Origin: a virus
Virus record (IMG/VR): IMGVR_UViG_3300044833_000104
Coordinates: 1-61,920 of that record
Strand: one strand, 5' to 3'
DNA length: 61,920 bases
Under the pieces are notes generated by a model. That model did no database searches and was not told the origin of the DNA. It saw nothing but the letters and a program-made list of their open reading frames with translations. Shown piece by piece: positions 1-29,961 of the stretch (the stretch's first letter is position 1; every line of letters begins with the position of its first letter). The translations under genes and the position numbers were made by a program.

Positions 1-127
1 CGGTAAGAGGTGGCGGATATTCCTTCGAACCGAGAAGAACGGTAAGCCCGTCTTCCTCCCCATCCCCGACGAGATGAAACGGGCGCTCGATATCGTACCG
101 GTGCCCCGAGGATGCAAGGGAGAATCG
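1..127. repeat. Terminal overlap, left copy
   Basis: These 127 bases are identical to bases 61794-61920. The repeat lies inside the integrase gene, and the reading frame continues across the joint without a break. The simplest reading is that a circular molecule was cut open by the assembler with its overlap kept, giving a unit of 61,793 bp. A true phage terminal repeat is less likely, because it would split the integrase gene. Confidence 0.95.
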
Positions 128-448
128 AAACACTTCTTCTGGAATGGTGTTAGTTCTGAGCGCACCATGAAGCATATCGCGGGTCGCGGGCTGCACTCCA
201 TTTTCAGGAGATCGGGGGTGCCAGCGGCACATGCCCATCGCTTCCGGCACACCCTGGCGACGGAGTTGATTGGCGCCGGTGCCAGCTTTGAGGTCGTCGC
301 GGACATCCTCGGGAATTCACCTGATGTCGTGCGGAAGCACTATGCAAAATGGTCACCGGCGCGACAGGTGAACATAGATTCGCTGATGGAGACCGTTCAT
401 TCGACCGCGACCTATACCACAATATCTCCGACTGACAGGGTCCAATGA
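1..448 (+). CDS. int: Tyrosine integrase, C-terminal part (continues from 61920)
   Basis: Catalytic half of the site-specific recombinase that inserts and excises the phage DNA. Joined to the part at 61096-61920 it gives 381 residues. Visible active-site residues in the joined protein are Arg218 (TALRLGD), Lys245 in the beta hairpin, the HxxRH box at about 312-316 (HRFRH), His346 and the nucleophile Tyr347 (RKHYAKW). The protein ends at 448, and the following non-coding stretch is the natural place for attP. Family assignment is secure; the target site is not known from sequence alone. Confidence 0.95.
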   Translation, partial: GKRWRIFLRTEKNGKPVFLPIPDEMKRALDIVPVPRGCKGESKHFFWNGVSSERTMKHIAGRGLHSIFRRSGVPAAHAHRFRHTLATELIGAGASFEVVADILGNSPDVVRKHYAKWSPARQVNIDSLMETVHSTATYTTISPTDRVQ

Positions 449-4519: not shown

Positions 4520-4692
4520 TCAACACGGCTACATACCCCACACTCGCCTCCCAGCCTCCCGCGCAGCAGCCCAACACCCGCGATGCTGCCGTCAACCGCG
4601 CCTTCCCTTGTGCAGCCTGCAAGGGAGCAGGGAGCTGTTCTGTTTGCATGACCCTCTACACCGAAAGCACCTACGAGGACCGCGACCGATGA
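4516..4692 (+). CDS. Zinc-finger miniprotein
   Basis: 58 residues, starting in an ATGA overlap. It has CAACKGAGSC and CSVCM in the second half, a compact CxxC...CxxC pair. Too short for most gene finders, but fully consistent with the overlapping chain of genes around it. Confidence 0.55.
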   Translation: MINTATYPTLASQPPAQQPNTRDAAVNRAFPCAACKGAGSCSVCMTLYTESTYEDRDR

Positions 4693-4889
4693 GCCTCTCA
4701 CTCTCCATTCGACCTACCGATACAGGCGTCTCCATCGAACTCATGGGAATCATCCGCGTTTGCAAGCACTGCCGGATGCCGATACTGCGTGATTTCTTTG
4801 GCTGGAGTCACCCGGAAAACGGCGGCTTCTCCTGGTGCAACATGAGCGACGACAGCGAAGCCAAAGCAGAACCGGCGGTGGCGGCATGA
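4689..4889 (+). CDS. Hypothetical small protein
   Basis: 66 residues, ATGA overlap with the gene before. It contains CKHCRMPI and a later Cys (WCNMS), suggesting a zinc ribbon. Acidic, Ala-rich tail. No family recognised. Confidence 0.55.
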   Translation: MSLSLSIRPTDTGVSIELMGIIRVCKHCRMPILRDFFGWSHPENGGFSWCNMSDDSEAKAEPAVAA

Positions 4890-5074
4890 CACCTGCACAG
4901 CAAATAGCCGGATACCTCAAACTCACCCGCGCCCACTACTACCTCAATGGCCGCCACAGCCCCAGCCCATGCCTAGCTCTGCGGAGTCTCATCGCTTTCG
5001 AGATGGAGTCGGAAATCCTGTTTATAGCGATCGACCTCAAGAACTTTTTGGAATATGACGAGGTGGCGGCATGA
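4886..5074 (+). CDS. Hypothetical small protein
   Basis: 62 residues, ATGA overlaps on both sides. Mostly helical (MTPAQQIAGYLKLTRAHYY). No family recognised; support comes from the unbroken overlap chain. Confidence 0.55.
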   Translation: MTPAQQIAGYLKLTRAHYYLNGRHSPSPCLALRSLIAFEMESEILFIAIDLKNFLEYDEVAA

Positions 5075-6299: not shown

Positions 6300-6377
6300 G
6301 ACATGGCGCGGCATAGCTTGGCATGGCACGGCTGGGCGCGGTATGGCGTGACAAGGGTTCCCGCTCTCAGGAGCGGG
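6300..6377 (+). repeat. GGYNN repeat array 1 with terminal hairpin
   Basis: From 6300 to 6359 the sequence keeps a strict 5-base register, twelve units of consensus GG(C/T)NN; examples are GGCGC, GGCAT, GGCAC and GGTAT. Two or three units have lost a G. A hairpin follows at once: CCCGCTC (6360-6366), loop TCAG, GAGCGGG (6371-6377). The array lies in the leader of the gene at 6422, with A-rich sequence and a ribosome site between. Two similar arrays occur at 7050 and 7191. It is not a CRISPR: the units are too short and have no spacers. Confidence 0.85.
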
Positions 6378-6421
6378 GGCAAAACAAAAACGAACAAGAC
6401 CAACAAAGGAGAAATCGCACA

Positions 6422-7036
6422 ATGTACAAAACTCTAAATCGCACACTAACTGGCATCTCACCGATTCTTTTACACAACGGTCGGCTGGCAAACCCGCTCG
6501 ACCCAATGTCGAAGGCAATGAAGGAAGTAAGCGCTAAAAAGAAAAAGACCGATGACGACCACAAACTGATGTCAGACATTGAGTGGCTCGGTTCAATCTA
6601 CACAGCGAGCGAAATCAACGTGACAATTCGCGGCTATAACGTTGCCGTCAAGTGCGACGGACCTGTCTGCATACCGGGCGACAACATCTCATCCATGCTC
6701 GCACTTGCAGGTGCAAAGTCGCGCCGGAAACAAGCATTCACGGCTGGCGTGTTGGTGGATGGCGATTTCCCCTTGCAATACTCCGGCCCCTCAACTCTCG
6801 CAGAGTTGTTTGCGAAGCCCGCATATCGATACATCAAGGGCTGCCGAATCGGCCAGTCGCGTGTCATGCGAACGCGGCCAATTTTCCGTTCGTGGAGTTT
6901 ACAAATTGCAATTCAGTATCTGTCGGATTTGTTGAATCCGAATGAGGTTGATGAAGCATTGACGCTTGCAGGCGCACAGATTGGCTTGTGTGACTATCGC
7001 CCGAGGTATGGACGGTTCTCGGTGCAAGCCGCATAA
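6422..7036 (+). CDS. RAMP/Cas7-like protein (tentative)
   Basis: 204 residues, with AAAGGAG about 12 bases upstream. Three features recall the RAMP (Cas7-type RNA-binding) fold: an N-terminal strand and loop TLTGISPILLHNGRL; a central CIPGDNISSML at the place where Csm3/Cmr4 proteins have IPGSSLKG; and a C-terminal glycine/arginine loop YRPRYGRFSV like the G-rich loop of Cas7. It is shorter than most Cas7 proteins. No other CRISPR gene or array was seen. The gene is flanked by GGYNN arrays on both sides, which makes an RNA- or ssDNA-binding role attractive. The fold assignment is motif-based inference; that it is a real gene is well supported. Confidence 0.6.
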   Translation: MYKTLNRTLTGISPILLHNGRLANPLDPMSKAMKEVSAKKKKTDDDHKLMSDIEWLGSIYTASEINVTIRGYNVAVKCDGPVCIPGDNISSMLALAGAKSRRKQAFTAGVLVDGDFPLQYSGPSTLAELFAKPAYRYIKGCRIGQSRVMRTRPIFRSWSLQIAIQYLSDLLNPNEVDEALTLAGAQIGLCDYRPRYGRFSVQAA

Positions 7037-7049
7037 AAAGCCTTTTCAG

Positions 7050-7170
7050 GGTGAGGCAGGGCAGGGCAAGGCGTGGTCCGGTTTGGCAGGGCGAGGTGCG
7101 GCGGGGTTAGGTATGGCAAGGGCTGTTGCATCTTCCGAGATGCCGTAAGTTCCCCGTCCGAAAGGGCGGG
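7050..7170 (+). repeat. GGYNN repeat array 2 with two hairpins
   Basis: Fifteen consecutive 5-base units from 7050 to 7124, every one beginning GG, third base usually C or T and the last two free. Then hairpin GCATCT-TCCG-AGATGC (7128-7143, a UNCG-type loop) and hairpin CCCGTCC-GAAA-GGGCGGG (7153-7170, a GNRA loop). The array starts 14 bases after the stop of the RAMP-like gene. Confidence 0.85.
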
Positions 7171-7190
7171 ACACATTAGAAGTTTTGTTG

Positions 7191-7287
7191 GGCAACGCAC
7201 GGCAGTGCAGGGCGTGGTTAGGCATGGATGGGCCCGGTCTGGTTCGGCTTGGTATGGCAAGGAGTTCGCATCCTCCGGGGCGCGAAC
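7191..7287 (+). repeat. GGYNN repeat array 3 with hairpin
   Basis: Fifteen 5-base units from 7191 to 7265, two of them with a first-base change (CGCAC, TGCAG). A hairpin follows: GTTCGC (7264-7269) pairs with GCGAAC (7282-7287), with an inner CC/GG closing the same TCCG loop as in array 2. It ends in the leader of the gene at 7312. Arrays 2 and 3 share the 3' end GGTATGGCAAGG. Confidence 0.85.
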
Positions 7288-8670: not shown

Positions 8671-9414
8671 ATGTCCAGCACCGCACTCGCAAGAGAAGAG
8701 CGCCATGAAATTACTGTACAGCCCACAGTGATGGAGATTCTAAGCAACGCTGTGCTGTCTGGAAAGGCGGATGTTAGCGTGATCGAGCGCCTGACCAAAT
8801 TGCAGCGAGAGCAAGTGGAGTATCAGGCAATGGTCGAATTCAATGAGGCCATGCACCGCTGCCAACAACAGATGAGGCACATCAACACAGACATGCAGTC
8901 GGATAAGGGTCGGTATGCCAGTTACAAACAAGTGGATAAGGCGATCCGGCCCATCTACACCGGCGAAGGCATATCCCTTTCTTTCTCTGACGGCGAGCCG
9001 ATAGCTCCCGACACCCTGCGCCTCCTCTGCTACGTCTCTCGCGGTGGCTACACCCGCGTCTACCACAAAGATATGCCCATCGATACGAAGGGAGCCAAGG
9101 GCAATGACGTGATGACGCGCACCCACGCTCAAGCCTCGGCTGATTCGTATGCAAAGCGCTATCTCGTCAAGGACATATTCAACCTTGCCGTTGGGGAGGC
9201 CGATGACGACGGCAACGGGGGCGCCCCAATGGAAGAGACAGAGTTTGTCTCCTGGCGAGACAACATCCTCAACTCTGCTGACGAGGATGACCTGCGGAAG
9301 TTTTTCAACGCAGCTTTTCAAGAAGCGACGAGGGCCAAGGATAAGCTCGCGCTCCAATCTTTCCGTGACGCCCGTGATCGACGGCGCAAGGAACTAAAGG
9401 AGCAAGCTCAGTGA
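8671..9414 (+). CDS. erf: ERF-family single-strand annealing protein
   Basis: 247 residues from the ATG at 8671 (AAAGGA upstream). It has the ERF core: EYQAMVEFNEAMHRCQQQM, then KGRYASYKQVDKAIRPIY with the usual aromatic and basic residues, and the AQASADSYAKRYLVKDIFNLAVGEADDDG end that is typical of the family. It anneals complementary single strands in phage recombination and circularisation. The overlapping downstream nuclease gene completes a Red-like pair. The C-terminal 50 residues are charged and variable. Confidence 0.85.
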   Translation: MSSTALAREERHEITVQPTVMEILSNAVLSGKADVSVIERLTKLQREQVEYQAMVEFNEAMHRCQQQMRHINTDMQSDKGRYASYKQVDKAIRPIYTGEGISLSFSDGEPIAPDTLRLLCYVSRGGYTRVYHKDMPIDTKGAKGNDVMTRTHAQASADSYAKRYLVKDIFNLAVGEADDDGNGGAPMEETEFVSWRDNILNSADEDDLRKFFNAAFQEATRAKDKLALQSFRDARDRRRKELKEQAQ

Positions 9415-24145: not shown

Positions 24146-26290
24146 CTAGTGGCAGTCTGGAACGATGACGCCATTGACGGTAGAGACGGCACAGGTGTAG
24201 TTGACAGTCCCCATCTTGGGCGCGGTCACTGCTACGGTTGCTGTCTTGGTCGAGCTCTTGAAATTGACTGTATCTGTTGGCGTAAATGTCACTGACAGCG
24301 TTGCCGTGCCTATCGGCAGATAGGTTCCCAGCGCAGGCGAGTAGGTGAACACCCCCGGCGTTGATGCCGTGGCATTCAGCTGGGCAGTGGACAGCGTAGA
24401 GGTGACAACCAAGGCCGCTGGGGCCCATGTAATGACGGGCGCGGCCTGCACAACTGGAGGAGGCGGAGGAGGCGGCAGGGGCAGGGCTGCTCCAACTACC
24501 TCAAACGCTCCGATGGAGGGCTGGGCTGGCCGCAGAGCGCCTGCATAGTCTGTGGTGACCCCGGCAACAGCGGCTCCAGCTCCTATGGCCGGACTGCCCG
24601 CCGTCAAGTGCGGGTCGATGGCGTCGATGTTCGACTCGGCGGTCAAGAGCGGATCGCCGCACTGGAAGGCCGTCTCGCCGGGGAGCGTGTTGTCCGGGCA
24701 GCCGGTTCTCATCGTGCTCCAGAGATTGTTCGTCGCGGTGATGTTGGCAGCGCCTATGCCGGTTTCGAAGTAGAACCCGGATGCGAGTTGGTTGAAATTC
24801 GCCGCGTCGGGGTAACCCTTGTTGATGTTGTTTTTGAAGATGATCTTTGTGGTCGGGCAGCTACCGCTTTTGCATCCGGTGTCGTACATCGTAGTCCCGT
24901 AGCCGACTGAGGTGTTGTTGGCCAGGGTGAGGGTCTGACCCTCCTTCATGCTGAAAGACCACTCATCGCCAGCGGCGCGGCAGAGGTCATGCAGGTTGGC
25001 ATTCCACCCGGGCGGATTTAGAGGAGCATTCGATGCCGTGCCGAGAAAGCGGCAGTTGCTGACAGAGACGGAATTTTCAACGCTGGTTGGGCCGCCCGCG
25101 CCGGTTTTGAAGGTTGCGCCTTCGTTGCCTTCCGCCCACGAGTTTGTAACATGAACCTGTGGGTTGTGGGTGAGGTCGTCTCCTTGGTGGAGGCCGTCAA
25201 AACCGTCTTGGGTGTTGTGGTGAAAAACGCTGCTATCGATGTTATAAATAGCGTCTCCCATAGCGATCAGGACGAGACCATCCCCATACCCCCACCCGCC
25301 ATCATCGTTGCCGTAGTTGTAGGAATTTTGATTGGGGGGAACGGCGAGGTTATATGGCTTGACCGCGTTGAATCCATTCCACCCCACATCGATGTGGGAG
25401 ATGTTGATCGTCCCAACCGATTCGCAGGACGCATTACACCCGCCGCCGTCAGCATCCCACCCGCCCATGCCGTTACCTTCGATGAACAGGTCGGAGGCCG
25501 TGGACACGTCGCTGGCGGTTGTGTTGTAGTGGCTTCCGTTGATGCCCTCTTCCGCCAGCCCTACGAGGGCAAGGTCTTTGAGGGTAAAGTTCGACGGACC
25601 TTGCCCGGTGTAGGACTGCATGAGGATGCCGACTTTAGCGAAGTTGTTCTTGTCCTGCACGCACGACCCTGTTACTGCGTTGTTCACGCGAACGCAGGTG
25701 TCCGGCTGGGTCAGTTCCATGCACTCTAGATCGACGTAGTTTGAACCGTGAAGATCAAAGAGGGCGTTGACTCCGTCGGTGCCTTCGATGACGGTCGGAT
25801 TGAGCAGGAGGGTGTGGGTGGGGTTATGGCACGCGCCTGCGTTTTTGCCGAGGATTCGGGTAGGATTCCCAGCCGAACCATTTGGCGGCGGCGGCGGATG
25901 GCAGCCATCTGTTCCCCCAGTGCTGGTACACCAGGGCCACGCCTGCCCCAGCCCGTTGAGCGGCTTGCCGTGGTAGTAGGGGCCAAGGTCTTCATATTGC
26001 ACCGTGTCGCCACCCGCGATGCGCCACGCAAAGGTGGACTGATTGAGCAGCCAGTACAGGTGATTTACGGCGCACGGCTGTGCCGTTCCCGATCCGGGGT
26101 AGGCGGCGTTCGTGGTGCCGGTGCATTGCGTTGCCGTGCCGCCGTCCAACCGGACATACCAGGTAGTCGGTGTGGGCGCTACGATGCCGCTCTGCATGGC
26201 CATGATGGAGCTGACGTGCGGGCGGTAGGTTTGGGCGGGAAGGCTCAGGCAGCATAGAACGGCGGCGAACACGAGCAGGAATCTGCGCAT
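24146..26290 (-). CDS. Secreted right-handed beta-helix protein with Ig-like end
   Basis: 714 residues from the ATG at 26290 (AAAGGAG upstream). Residues 1-19 are a Sec signal peptide (MRRFLLVFAAVLCCLSLPAQ). Residues about 50-560 contain short Asn- and Gly-rich turns typical of pectate-lyase-like beta-helices. A poly-Pro linker (LPPPPPPPV) leads to an Ig-like repeat (ITWAPAALVVTSTLSTAQLN) of a kind common in Acidobacteria surface proteins. A signal peptide is odd for a virion part, so it is probably a host-surface or secreted cargo protein. Polysaccharide binding or cleavage is possible. Confidence 0.75.
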   Translation of the reverse strand: MRRFLLVFAAVLCCLSLPAQTYRPHVSSIMAMQSGIVAPTPTTWYVRLDGGTATQCTGTTNAAYPGSGTAQPCAVNHLYWLLNQSTFAWRIAGGDTVQYEDLGPYYHGKPLNGLGQAWPWCTSTGGTDGCHPPPPPNGSAGNPTRILGKNAGACHNPTHTLLLNPTVIEGTDGVNALFDLHGSNYVDLECMELTQPDTCVRVNNAVTGSCVQDKNNFAKVGILMQSYTGQGPSNFTLKDLALVGLAEEGINGSHYNTTASDVSTASDLFIEGNGMGGWDADGGGCNASCESVGTINISHIDVGWNGFNAVKPYNLAVPPNQNSYNYGNDDGGWGYGDGLVLIAMGDAIYNIDSSVFHHNTQDGFDGLHQGDDLTHNPQVHVTNSWAEGNEGATFKTGAGGPTSVENSVSVSNCRFLGTASNAPLNPPGWNANLHDLCRAAGDEWSFSMKEGQTLTLANNTSVGYGTTMYDTGCKSGSCPTTKIIFKNNINKGYPDAANFNQLASGFYFETGIGAANITATNNLWSTMRTGCPDNTLPGETAFQCGDPLLTAESNIDAIDPHLTAGSPAIGAGAAVAGVTTDYAGALRPAQPSIGAFEVVGAALPLPPPPPPPVVQAAPVITWAPAALVVTSTLSTAQLNATASTPGVFTYSPALGTYLPIGTATLSVTFTPTDTVNFKSSTKTATVAVTAPKMGTVNYTCAVSTVNGVIVPDCH

Positions 26291-26393: not shown

Positions 26394-27413
26394 ATGGCAA
26401 CTGCGGTACTCAGCCCTACAGAGATTTCGGCAAAGCACCGCATCCCCACCCTCGACGGATGGCGCGGCATCGCGATCCTTCTGGTGCTGGTCAGCCATTT
26501 GCAGTGGGGCTTATTCCACCACGAGATCATCTCGACGGGCATTCATGGAGTCGCAGTCTTCTTCGTGCTCAGCGGCTACCTGATCACCTCAAAGCTTCGA
26601 GAGGAGTATCAGCAGACCGGCTCGATCAACCTCAAACACTTCTTCATCCGAAGGCTCTTCCGGCTCATGCCCGCCGCATGGACCTACCTGCTGGCGATTG
26701 GATTGATGACGCGACACGGGCTTGTACTTGGACGCCACACGATCCTGGCCTGCCTGCTGTTTTATCGCAACTTCAACCAACTCATTGATGCTGGGCCCGG
26801 CTCTTTCATTACCGGCCATTTCTGGTCGCTCTCGATCGAGGAACAGTTTTACCTCTTTTGGCCTTCCACTCTTTTACTTCTGGGATTCAGGCGAGTTCGC
26901 TATTTCTGTCTCGTCGTTGCGGTGATCGTGGCAGCAGTACGGTTGCACCATTGGTCGATGCTGATGACCATCGAGCCGGCAGAGTCGTTCGCAACGCAGT
27001 ATCGAGCCGACGCGCTTTTTGTTGGTTGCGCTGCGGCCCTTTCGGTTCCGCTTCTATCCAGATACGTTCGCGGATGGATGCTCGCACCTCTGTGCGCCCT
27101 TCTGATTCTCTGCATTTCGAAATACAGCCTGCTCATCCCTCTCTGGGAGCCGGTCGTCATCGCTCTGGCCATTTTTTCCACCTCTACAGGCAGCCATCCG
27201 GTGATGGCCCGCACCCTCGAATGGAAGCCGCTGGTTTATCTAGGAACCATCTCTTATTCGCTCTATCTTTGGCAGGAACCCTTTCTCTGGACGCACATCG
27301 ACGGAGCAACGTCTGCGGTGGTGCGGCTAGCTGTCGTCGCCGGAACCGCAGTGCTGAGTTACCACTTCATCGAAAGGCCGATGATCGCATTTGGAAGGCG
27401 GTTGATCCCCTAA
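26394..27413 (+). CDS. Acyltransferase 3 family membrane enzyme (OafA-like)
   Basis: 339 residues from the ATG at 26394; a TTG at 26343 would add 17 residues. About ten membrane segments. Family marks are IPTLDGWRGIAILLVLVSHL with the catalytic-type His, VAVFFVLSGYLIT, FFIRRLFRLMPAAW, GHFWSLSIEEQFYLFWP and YLGTISYSLYLWQEP. It would O-acylate a surface glycan such as O-antigen. It is the only rightward gene in the tail region, a typical lysogenic-conversion insertion that could mask the phage receptor. Confidence 0.88.
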   Translation: MATAVLSPTEISAKHRIPTLDGWRGIAILLVLVSHLQWGLFHHEIISTGIHGVAVFFVLSGYLITSKLREEYQQTGSINLKHFFIRRLFRLMPAAWTYLLAIGLMTRHGLVLGRHTILACLLFYRNFNQLIDAGPGSFITGHFWSLSIEEQFYLFWPSTLLLLGFRRVRYFCLVVAVIVAAVRLHHWSMLMTIEPAESFATQYRADALFVGCAAALSVPLLSRYVRGWMLAPLCALLILCISKYSLLIPLWEPVVIALAIFSTSTGSHPVMARTLEWKPLVYLGTISYSLYLWQEPFLWTHIDGATSAVVRLAVVAGTAVLSYHFIERPMIAFGRRLIP

Positions 27414-27423
27414 AGCTGAGCAT

Positions 27424-29961
27424 CTACAGCGTAGCGTTGCCCACGGTGACCCAGTTGAGCAGATTGTTTAGCACATAGTTGGCAGCGTCAGATGCAACGC
27501 TGATTCCTCCAAAGCCGATCTTGGTTGGCGTAATGAAGGTGCCCACTGCCTCCGAATAAAAGTTGATGAAGTTCACGCCGTCGAAGCTGTAGTCGAAGAA
27601 GAGGGTAGTGCCACTGTTGCGAAGCTGCACCCAAAGCGGGGAAAAGAAAGGGGAAATAGGATTTCCGGTAAATTGCGTTGGGCCGGATGCCACCGTTGAA
27701 TTATCTGAATTGACATTGTTGATCCTCTCCACGCGCGGCAAGATTCCAGTCGTTTGGGTGAGAAATTCAAAGCCCATCAGCTTCGTACCATCGTAGAAAT
27801 AAATCCCAGCGTCCTGTGAGCTTACGAATCCCTTGCCTATCGCCATTCTGAATTGTGCTTGAACCTTGTACGGCGTACTTGGCTGTGCAACAAATAATCC
27901 GCGCCAGTTCAAAGAGCTACTATCGACTATATGCATCAGGATCGGCCCGCTGCTAGAGCCGTTTTGAATCGCCGTTGAGGCACCCTGATTCACCCAGGTG
28001 AAGCTTGACAGCGCGGGGCAGCTACTTCCACCACCGCCTCCGCCGCCTGCTGCCCACTTCGTTCCTGTTGCTTGTGTTGAATCAGCCGTGAGCACCTGCC
28101 CATCTGAGCCAACTGGCAAACGTGTCGCAGTCCCGCCCGTTGCCCCGGCGATCACGTCACCCTTCGTAGTCATCGGGTTCGCGAACCCGGCTGGATTTGC
28201 CGCCCACTTCAATCCCAGCACTTGCGACGAGTCCGCAGTGAGTACCTGCGTGTCAGCGCCGACTGGAATACGGGCGCTGGCCGTGCTATAGCCTGCGAGA
28301 TCGCCCTTGGTGGTAGTTGGCGAACTTCCTCCTGCTGGCACAGCCCAAGTCGCATCTTCGCGCAGGAATTTGGTCGTTCCTGCTGTCGCTCCCGGATCGG
28401 GTACAGCTCCAACCGCGTGACTGCTTCCAGAGGCAACCATGACCGGGAGATCAGTGGCGGCAACTGCACGAAATGTAGGAACCGCTGCACTACCCGAGGC
28501 GGGGCCAGCAAACACAAGGTTCGCACTCTGGGCGTTGTCTGTGATTGCAATGGCAGGCGTCGTGGTTGGATTTGTAACCGTGACAGTCTGCCGCGACGGA
28601 ACCGAAGCCGAGACCCTGCTGACTGACCCCGTACCCGGCGCAATAGACATCTTCAGCGCGATCAGGGAAAGCCCAACACTGCCGCCTGTGGTACCAAACC
28701 CAACCGTATTCGAGTAGACGCCAGCAGCAGAGGCAACCCCGTCGAATCCGGTCACAATAAAAGGGGTGGTTCCGATATTAGATTGGGTGGCAACTTGCGG
28801 CCATGTGGGTGTGGTCGAGATTGCTCCCACTCCAAGCGTGGCCGCTGACAAATGAAGTATGTCGCCATAAGCGGTAGTTGTCACATTGCCCGTTCCCAAC
28901 GTGGCTCCGTTGGATATTGAAAGTGCGGGAACGTAGGCATCGACCGTGCTCTTCGGATACTCGTAAAGATTGACCGTTGGCTTGACGTTAGGGCTGATAT
29001 TTAGCGTGACTGTGTTGGCACCGCCCACTATGTTGGTGGCGATAAACACGCCCGAGGTAAAAGGCGTACCTCCACTGACTCCCTGCAAGTTGTAAAGCGT
29101 ATAAGTGTTTCCCTGAGTGTCGCTGCACGTAGGCGATGAGCCGCCTGCTGAGTTGTAAATAAATTCAAGCAGAATAGTGTTGCCTGCCACCGTGTTTGAA
29201 GCAAAAGTGGTAGCGAGCGTGCTGACCAGGACAGCCGAGCCGGATACCTCCTGAATCAAAGCGCTTCCGCTGACGATCTGAACCGCCAACGAGATGGCTC
29301 CACTGCCTAGGTCACTCACAGCAACCGACGCGCTGCTCTTGAGGTTGAGCACTGTGGACGAACTGTTGGCCGTTCCGTCGTGCTGGAGGGCGATACTGCT
29401 CCCGCTCGCTGGCACGGAAAACGTCCCATCCGCCTTCAGGAACTTCCCCGCAGCCGCCGAGCCCGCAGGAGGAGCAGGCACCGCACCTGCCGCTCCGCCT
29501 GAACCAGAATCGCCAGTGAACGCGCTGATCGCCAGCGTACGGTTTGCTGACAAGTCCCCGCCGCCCGTAAGAGGCGCAGTAGTCGCGATTGTTCGGCTCG
29601 TCGGAACCTTCGCAGCGAGGTCCGTGACGAGGTTAGTGACCTTCGACTCGGGCAGGCTGGGAATGTCCGCTGCGACCAGCGCACGCAGGATTACTGTTCC
29701 GCTAGATCCATCCGGCGTTGCCAGAACTTCATTCGCGGGGCCAGATGGCAGCACCGCCGACATCGTCCCGTCCGCAGCTACCGTGGTCGTCGTCCCATCC
29801 GGCTTTACCGTTCCCCGCAAAGACGCTGTGGCCTTTTGAGGGTAGAAGCTGATCGACTGTAGCGGTGCAGCACCGTCGGTCTGCGGCTTGACGTTCTGAT
29901 CCCCGGTTGGAGCCGCCGGGGCGGTGCTGTTGAGCAGGATGCTTACTGTTGGAGTGGGCAT
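27424..29961 (-). CDS. Tail fibre or receptor-binding protein
   Basis: 845 residues. The N-terminal part carries fibre repeats such as TTAPLTGGGDLSANRTLAI. Two related segments, ARIPVGADTQVLTADSSQ and TRLPVGSDGQVLTADSTQ, follow. The last 180 residues look like a jelly-roll lectin (WRGLFVAQPSTPYKVQAQFR, WVQLRNSGTTLFFDYSFDG). The start overlaps the upstream tail-hub gene. It probably recognises a surface sugar. Inverse orientation to the acyltransferase that ends 11 bases away. Confidence 0.8.
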   Translation of the reverse strand: MPTPTVSILLNSTAPAAPTGDQNVKPQTDGAAPLQSISFYPQKATASLRGTVKPDGTTTTVAADGTMSAVLPSGPANEVLATPDGSSGTVILRALVAADIPSLPESKVTNLVTDLAAKVPTSRTIATTAPLTGGGDLSANRTLAISAFTGDSGSGGAAGAVPAPPAGSAAAGKFLKADGTFSVPASGSSIALQHDGTANSSSTVLNLKSSASVAVSDLGSGAISLAVQIVSGSALIQEVSGSAVLVSTLATTFASNTVAGNTILLEFIYNSAGGSSPTCSDTQGNTYTLYNLQGVSGGTPFTSGVFIATNIVGGANTVTLNISPNVKPTVNLYEYPKSTVDAYVPALSISNGATLGTGNVTTTAYGDILHLSAATLGVGAISTTPTWPQVATQSNIGTTPFIVTGFDGVASAAGVYSNTVGFGTTGGSVGLSLIALKMSIAPGTGSVSRVSASVPSRQTVTVTNPTTTPAIAITDNAQSANLVFAGPASGSAAVPTFRAVAATDLPVMVASGSSHAVGAVPDPGATAGTTKFLREDATWAVPAGGSSPTTTKGDLAGYSTASARIPVGADTQVLTADSSQVLGLKWAANPAGFANPMTTKGDVIAGATGGTATRLPVGSDGQVLTADSTQATGTKWAAGGGGGGGSSCPALSSFTWVNQGASTAIQNGSSSGPILMHIVDSSSLNWRGLFVAQPSTPYKVQAQFRMAIGKGFVSSQDAGIYFYDGTKLMGFEFLTQTTGILPRVERINNVNSDNSTVASGPTQFTGNPISPFFSPLWVQLRNSGTTLFFDYSFDGVNFINFYSEAVGTFITPTKIGFGGISVASDAANYVLNNLLNWVTVGNATL

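What the first reader, a model, noticed from the sequence alone, without database searches (positions are those of the whole stretch)
6300..7287. Three arrays of degenerate GGYNN pentamers, each ending in a stable hairpin, around a two-gene unit
Seen directly: three tracts (6300-6359, 7050-7124, 7191-7265) keep an exact 5-base period over 12, 15 and 15 units. G at positions 1 and 2 is nearly fixed, position 3 is C or T, and positions 4-5 are free. Fixed G with free N means selection acts on the spacing and the GG, not on a coding frame or a unique site. Each tract ends in a hairpin, twice with a UNCG-type TCCG loop. The arrays sit in the leaders of two adjacent genes, one RAMP-like. No known repeat class (CRISPR, Chi, REP, iteron) fits. 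A helical protein touching every fifth base of an RNA or single strand would explain it.
Basis: partly seen in the sequence, partly recalled or inferred. Interest (0 to 1): 0.92.

Follow-up and report, generated by a model that had tools for sequence, protein, structure and literature searches.

The report
Phage VIPR guide RNAs and Vipr protein
The three GGYNN arrays are guide RNAs of VIPR, a phage-carried, CRISPR-like DNA-targeting system first described in a 2026 preprint; this is a good new member of it, with one tentative target in related phages.

Summary
Three plus-strand tracts with an exact 5-base period (9-12 of 12 in-phase GG, against at most 7 in simulations) flank gene 6422-7036, and each ends in a hairpin. 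They are the vrRNAs of a VIPR system (preprint PMC13142463, April 2026). Gene 6422 is Vipr: it matches the solved SUSP1 Vipr protein (PDB 36pp, E=4.6e-26), and its predicted fold (pLDDT 93) is a CRISPR RAMP fold (Csm3/Cas7). Gene 7312 belongs to the Vap1 family. In 410 arrays from loci that encode Vipr, 408 lie on the vipr strand. A sister phage that lacks vipr also lacks the arrays.

In VIPR the 'free' NN pairs are the address: they read target DNA as xNN, skipping one base. I tested this decoding on P. aeruginosa prophage LESphi2: all three guides hit competing temperate phages (18/18, 19/20, 20/22 bases; about 1e-4 expected), the skipped base at the codon wobble position. By the same rule, window guide A2 matches a small gene in two viral contigs (18/18 bases of a 9-dinucleotide core, wobble in phase); suggestive only. 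A1 and A3 have no target in what I could search. Verdict: new member of a known, very recently described kind.

The parts
6300..6359 (+). vrRNA 1 guide tract (A1), 5' of vipr; NN code GC AT TT AT AC TG GC AT GT, then constant AA
   Evidence: (9/12 in-phase GG; units listed); tail boundary inferred from the shared GRCAAGGR ending
6350..6380 (+). vrRNA 1 tail: GACAAGG plus 10-bp hairpin, loop TCAG
   Evidence: fold
6422..7036 (+). vipr: Vipr RAMP protein, 204 aa; start chosen from the AAAGGAG ribosome site 5' of ATG 6422
   Evidence: PDB 36pp SUSP1 Vipr E=4.6e-26, profile 8.8e-45; AF2 pLDDT 93; Foldseek to Csm3/Cas7 RAMPs; phrog_4652 3.4e-45
7050..7124 (+). vrRNA 2 guide tract (A2); NN code GA AG AG AA GT CC TT AG GA GC GG TA AT, then constant AA
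   Evidence: (12/12 GG)
7115..7170 (+). vrRNA 2 tail: GGCAAGG, hairpin 7128-7143 (TCCG loop), then second hairpin 7153-7170 (GAAA loop; whether it belongs to the RNA is not known)
7191..7265 (+). vrRNA 3 guide tract (A3); NN code AA AC AG AG GT TA AT TG CC CT TC TT AT, then constant AA
   Evidence: (11/12 GG)
7256..7287 (+). vrRNA 3 tail: GGCAAGG plus hairpin 7264-7287 with TCCG loop
7312..7758 (+). vap: Vap1-family accessory protein (148 aa); separated from vipr by two vrRNAs
   Evidence: profile-profile 99.8% probability to the family that contains gene 94 of phage wV8; the same family includes the gene after vipr in SUSP2; homologues always downstream of vipr on the same strand

Best explanation
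A VIPR cassette, by its genes closest to the published type II, in a tailed phage or prophage. The three tracts are transcribed as vrRNAs of about 75-100 nt (inferred here; shown for SUSP1 in the preprint). Vipr subunits line up on the RNA, one per GGY (inferred), leaving each NN free; the 3' hairpin tail caps the complex. The NN pairs together base-pair with double-stranded DNA that carries the same dinucleotides separated by one ignored base (xNN), and the bound complex blocks transcription of the target gene, helped by Vap1. The phage uses it against competing phages; guide A2 most likely targets a small gene inside the tail region of related phages. Shown here: the arrays, the protein family and fold, the vap family, cassette gain/loss, and the decoding rule on a relative. 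Inferred from the preprint: expression, RNP assembly and repression. Predicted only: the A2 target.
For: Vipr identity: PDB 36pp; G-loop residues GxGDxRP...GRF and RxRPxFxxW conserved. RAMP fold. Arrays and strand: (408 of 410 arrays on the vipr strand, median distance 292 nt; logo G96 G95 C72/T23 N N). Vipr loci found without using arrays: 8 of 10 named phages have GG arrays, and the other two, like contigs L003 and L004, carry period-5 arrays with other consensus. Vap1. Sister phage without vipr has no arrays. Decoding control on LESphi2. A2 target. Literature.
Against: No transcript or binding data exist for this phage. The A2 target rests on 9 of 13 dinucleotides in two homologous genes; of the remaining 8 letters only 4 match in each contig, and about 1-3 chance hits are expected in a collection of this size (my estimate). 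A1 and A3 have no exact hit in viral contigs, A3 none in genome contigs. Tracts 1 and 3 have broken units and may be decayed. Downstream hairpins are enriched only modestly across the Vap1 set.
Confidence: 0.95

Rival explanations
1. The arrays are cis-acting binding sites in the leaders: Vipr binds its own mRNA and that of 7312, as TRAP binds repeated triplets, and regulates expression; there is no guide function.
For: Arrays sit 5' of both genes; a multimeric protein binding a 5-base period would act like TRAP.
Against: Related arrays lie both upstream and downstream of the genes and occur in long series. The NN code of a related phage matches competing phages far beyond chance. The preprint shows free vrRNAs of about 100 nt and guide-dependent repression.
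Confidence: 0.03
2. The arrays are single-strand DNA sites for the phage annealing protein (Erf at 8671) or another replication or recombination protein.
For: Erf and YqaJ exonuclease genes lie 1-3 kb downstream.
Against: A relative with Erf 91% identical has no arrays and no vipr; arrays follow vipr across phages with unrelated neighbours.
Confidence: 0.01
3. Plain low-complexity G-rich repeats or slippage products without function.
For: Four of the 120 pattern hits are simple repeats with one to four NN types (L098, L105, L112, L113).
Against: The NN positions vary freely here while GG keeps phase; 408 of 410 arrays are on the vipr strand.
Confidence: 0.01

Closest known systems
VIPR type II of Escherichia phage SUSP1 (preprint PMC13142463; PDB 36pp)
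   Same: Vipr homologue over its full length; vrRNAs of 9-16 GGYNN units followed by a structured 3' tail; Vap1-family gene; one vrRNA upstream and others downstream of vipr; phage-borne.
   Different: Two vrRNAs lie between vipr and vap instead of after both genes; tails are different hairpins; about one third of protein residues identical to the Felix O1-like relatives; different kind of phage.
VIPR of P. aeruginosa prophage LESphi2 (L125)
   Same: Vipr 38% identical, Vap1, three vrRNAs, GGCAAGGGCT junction as in window A2.
   Different: All three vrRNAs lie upstream of vipr; targets can be predicted for all three.
Class 1 CRISPR effectors (Csm3/Cas7 RAMPs)
   Same: RAMP fold with glycine-rich loop; protein oligomerises on a guide capped by a 3' hairpin.
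   Different: No CRISPR array, no adaptation genes; guide paired in a gapped code, not a continuous one.
TRAP and its repeated triplet RNA
   Same: Multimeric protein reading short RNA motifs at about 5-base spacing (from general knowledge).
   Different: No sequence match and no fold match among the best hits; no guide function.

Membership tests
VIPR | Vipr RAMP protein | tested here: met
   PDB 36pp 'SUSP1 Vipr protein' E=4.6e-26 by single sequence, 8.8e-45 by profile; RAMP fold by Foldseek
VIPR | vrRNA loci of 9-16 YNNGG repeats beside vipr | tested here: met
   three tracts, 12, 15 and 15 units
VIPR | 3' structured tail after the repeats | tested here: met
   hairpin directly after each tract; the pseudoknot reported for SUSP1 was not tested
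VIPR | accessory vap gene | tested here: met
   7312 gene belongs to one family with the genes after vipr in LESphi2 and wV8, hhalign 99.8%, and SUSP2
VIPR | vrRNAs are transcribed and bound by Vipr | not testable with these tools
   needs small-RNA sequencing and pull-down
VIPR | 1-nt-skip recognition of target DNA | tested here: inconclusive
   window A2 hits two contigs with 18/18 bases of a 9-NN core in wobble phase; A1 and A3 no hit. Rule met on relative LESphi2
VIPR type II | Vipr clade of SUSP1/P. fulva with Vap1 | tested here: inconclusive
   Vap1 present and the only solved relative of Vipr is SUSP1; the preprint's tree and type boundaries were not available to test
CRISPR-Cas class 1 | CRISPR repeat-spacer array and cas operon | tested here: not met
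   no cas genes among the nine genes scanned around the cassette; no PADLOC match for the two cassette proteins; no Rfam match in the window

The most novel reading that the evidence does not exclude
Guide A2 of this phage silences a small reverse-oriented gene (protein MGRKKVPLSEAGY..., CPKCG motif) lodged in the tail cluster of related phages, so that VIPR here attacks a rival's accessory gene near its start codon; the cassette, with vrRNAs between vipr and vap, is a mobile module that its sister phage lacks.
Probability: 0.5. Interest if true: 0.5.

Novelty: new member of a known kind. Interest (0 to 1): 0.45.

Why it matters
VIPR is a phage weapon proposed to predate CRISPR and uses an unusual gapped guide code. 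A blind reading of raw sequence recovered it, and this member adds a new gene order, a gain/loss case between sister phages, a tentative target, and independent support for the decoding rule in a known clinical prophage (LESphi2).

Tried and rejected
Rfam and tRNA scans of the window: nothing. Promoter/terminator scan: nothing convincing, no promoter-like site on the + strand before any array. Exact scans for A2 with 12 NN, A3 with 10 and 9 NN and A1 with 9 NN in viral contigs, and A3 with 11 NN in genome contigs: no hit. All three guides against the full records of 52 other phages with up to 2-3 mismatches: none, including the sister phage. All 367 guides of suitable length against the held loci: no general excess for skip 1 over permuted guides, because the held loci are mostly not the targets. 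Host search by YqaJ in genome contigs and by the integrase remnant in plasmids: no relative, so the host is not established; the integrase piece at 74-448 reminds me of Acidobacteriota, from memory only.

Full report
OBSERVATION. The window is a whole IMG/VR virus record of 61,920 bases. The three tracts are as described: in-phase GG reaches 9, 12 and 11 of 12 units, while 30 simulations of the whole window never exceed 7; no other place and no position on the minus strand reaches 8 at period 5. Each tract ends in GRCAAGGR and then a hairpin. Two of the three loops are TCCG; the first is TCAG. Tract 2 is perfect; tracts 1 and 3 contain broken units.

THE PROTEIN. The gene at 6422-7036 has no Pfam, PADLOC or NCBIfam match but belongs to phrog_4652, a family of unknown function. 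A 52-sequence alignment gave an AlphaFold2 model with mean pLDDT 93, whose nearest solved folds are Csm3/Cas7-type RAMP subunits of type III CRISPR complexes (best E 1.5e-5, TM about 0.46). A sequence search of the PDB finds one true relative: 36pp, 'SUSP1 Vipr protein' (E=4.6e-26 alone, 8.8e-45 by profile).

WHAT IT IS. PMC13142463 (preprint, April 2026, revised June 2026) describes VIPR: a small phage RAMP (Vipr) that binds vrRNAs of 9-16 GGY/NN units plus a structured 3' tail. The NN pairs recognise double-stranded DNA with one skipped base per unit, without a PAM, and silence the target; targets are mainly competing phages and satellites. Every sequence feature that defines the locus and can be tested here is met. 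The 7312 gene is its accessory gene: iterated profiles put it in one family with the genes next to vipr in LESphi2, Medea1, MakoManhole, wV8 and SUSP2, which I take to be Vap1 because SUSP2 is a near relative of SUSP1. The gene order vrRNA - vipr - vrRNA - vrRNA - vap differs from SUSP1, where three vrRNAs follow both genes; L015 and L039 also carry arrays between vipr and vap.

CO-OCCURRENCE. A scan of viral contigs for ten GGYNN units stopped at 120 loci. A Vipr profile finds the gene in 86 of them and in the full records of 7 more; four of the rest are simple repeats. Of 410 arrays in loci with Vipr, 408 are on its strand, at a median 292 nt; across 479 arrays the unit is G 96%, G 95%, C 72% or T 23%, then two nearly even positions (position 3 is biased by the search pattern). 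In the other direction, ten named phages with a Vipr gene were read: eight have GG arrays on the vipr strand, and phiHSIC and Vibrio phage 1.266.O have GCANN arrays instead (10 and 11 of 11 units against 5-7 in simulations); contig L004 has RGYNN arrays. The sister phage L129 (Erf 91% identical) has neither the gene nor any array; sequence similarity resumes at window 7745. The cassette therefore comes and goes as a unit.

DECODING. To check orientation, tail boundary and skip, I decoded the three vrRNAs of P. aeruginosa prophage LESphi2 and searched 13 P. aeruginosa phage records (LESphi2 itself and 12 others). Guide 1 matches 18/18 bases in five phages, guide 2 19/20 in three, guide 3 20/22 in two; PAN70 is hit by all three; LESphi2 itself, LESphi3 and LESphi4 are not hit, and reversed patterns give nothing. 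The expected numbers are 2e-5 to 1e-4. In PAN70 all three targets lie in coding sequence on the sense strand with the skipped base at the wobble position. This is independent support for the published rule in a phage that the main text of the preprint does not name. Several of the hit phages are related to each other, so the hits are not all independent.

TARGET OF THE WINDOW. By the same rule a 9-NN core of A2 (18 bases) hits two viral contigs, L130 and L131, in one homologous small gene (MGRKKVPLSEAGY.../MGKKKVPLSEAGY..., 83% identical), near its start codon, again with the skipped base at the wobble position. Both contigs carry tail genes related to the window's own, and the gene lies between tail genes in the opposite direction. 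About 1-3 chance hits are expected for 18 bases in a collection of this size (my estimate; its total length is not stated), and only half of the remaining letters match, so I call this suggestive. A1 and A3 gave no hits. The window itself is not a target.

VERDICT. Real, important in kind, already described as a kind; a new member with a variant gene order. Steps shown: arrays, family, fold, accessory gene, gain/loss, decoding on a relative. Inferred: transcription, assembly, silencing in this phage.

Noticed in passing
L125 (LESphi2) 4591-4655, 4707-4766, 4826-4895; targets PAN70 25815-25846, 26704-26732, 27948-27973 (minus): The P. aeruginosa Liverpool-strain prophage LESphi2 carries a VIPR system whose three guides match early-region genes of competing temperate phages (PAN70, Pacha_bin_1, Ostro, BR144a, CF24b, F10) almost perfectly under the 1-nt-skip rule.
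   Followed up: partly
L155 3747-3801; L154 3840-3894; L004 5965-6050; L003 695-750: Vipr loci without GGYNN arrays carry period-5 arrays with another consensus: GCANN in Vibrio phages, RGYNN in L004, a weaker GC-based one in L003.
   Followed up: partly
L016, L020, L024, L026, L027, L055, L107, L118: Phage records of 24-105 kb with one or two well-varied GGYNN arrays but no Vipr detected anywhere in the record: orphan guides, fragments or very divergent Vipr.
   Followed up: partly
L013 3186-3240 against L121 332 (minus): A guide of one VIPR phage matches another array-bearing contig with 19/20 bases under the 1-nt-skip rule.
   Followed up: no
L156 (Mycobacterium phage LittleE), L154 (phiHSIC), L127 (Medea1): VIPR genes sit as an insert inside the virion structural genes, in LittleE and phiHSIC on the opposite strand.
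   Followed up: no
L128 (phage wV8) 4756-4813 and 6149-6206: The 58-bp 'DR_4' direct repeats annotated in GenBank lie beside the vrRNA arrays; the second overlaps the 3' end of one, so they are probably vrRNA tails.
   Followed up: no
window 74-448: Remnant resembling a tyrosine recombinase at the very start of the record, suggesting a prophage edge; host not established.
   Followed up: partly
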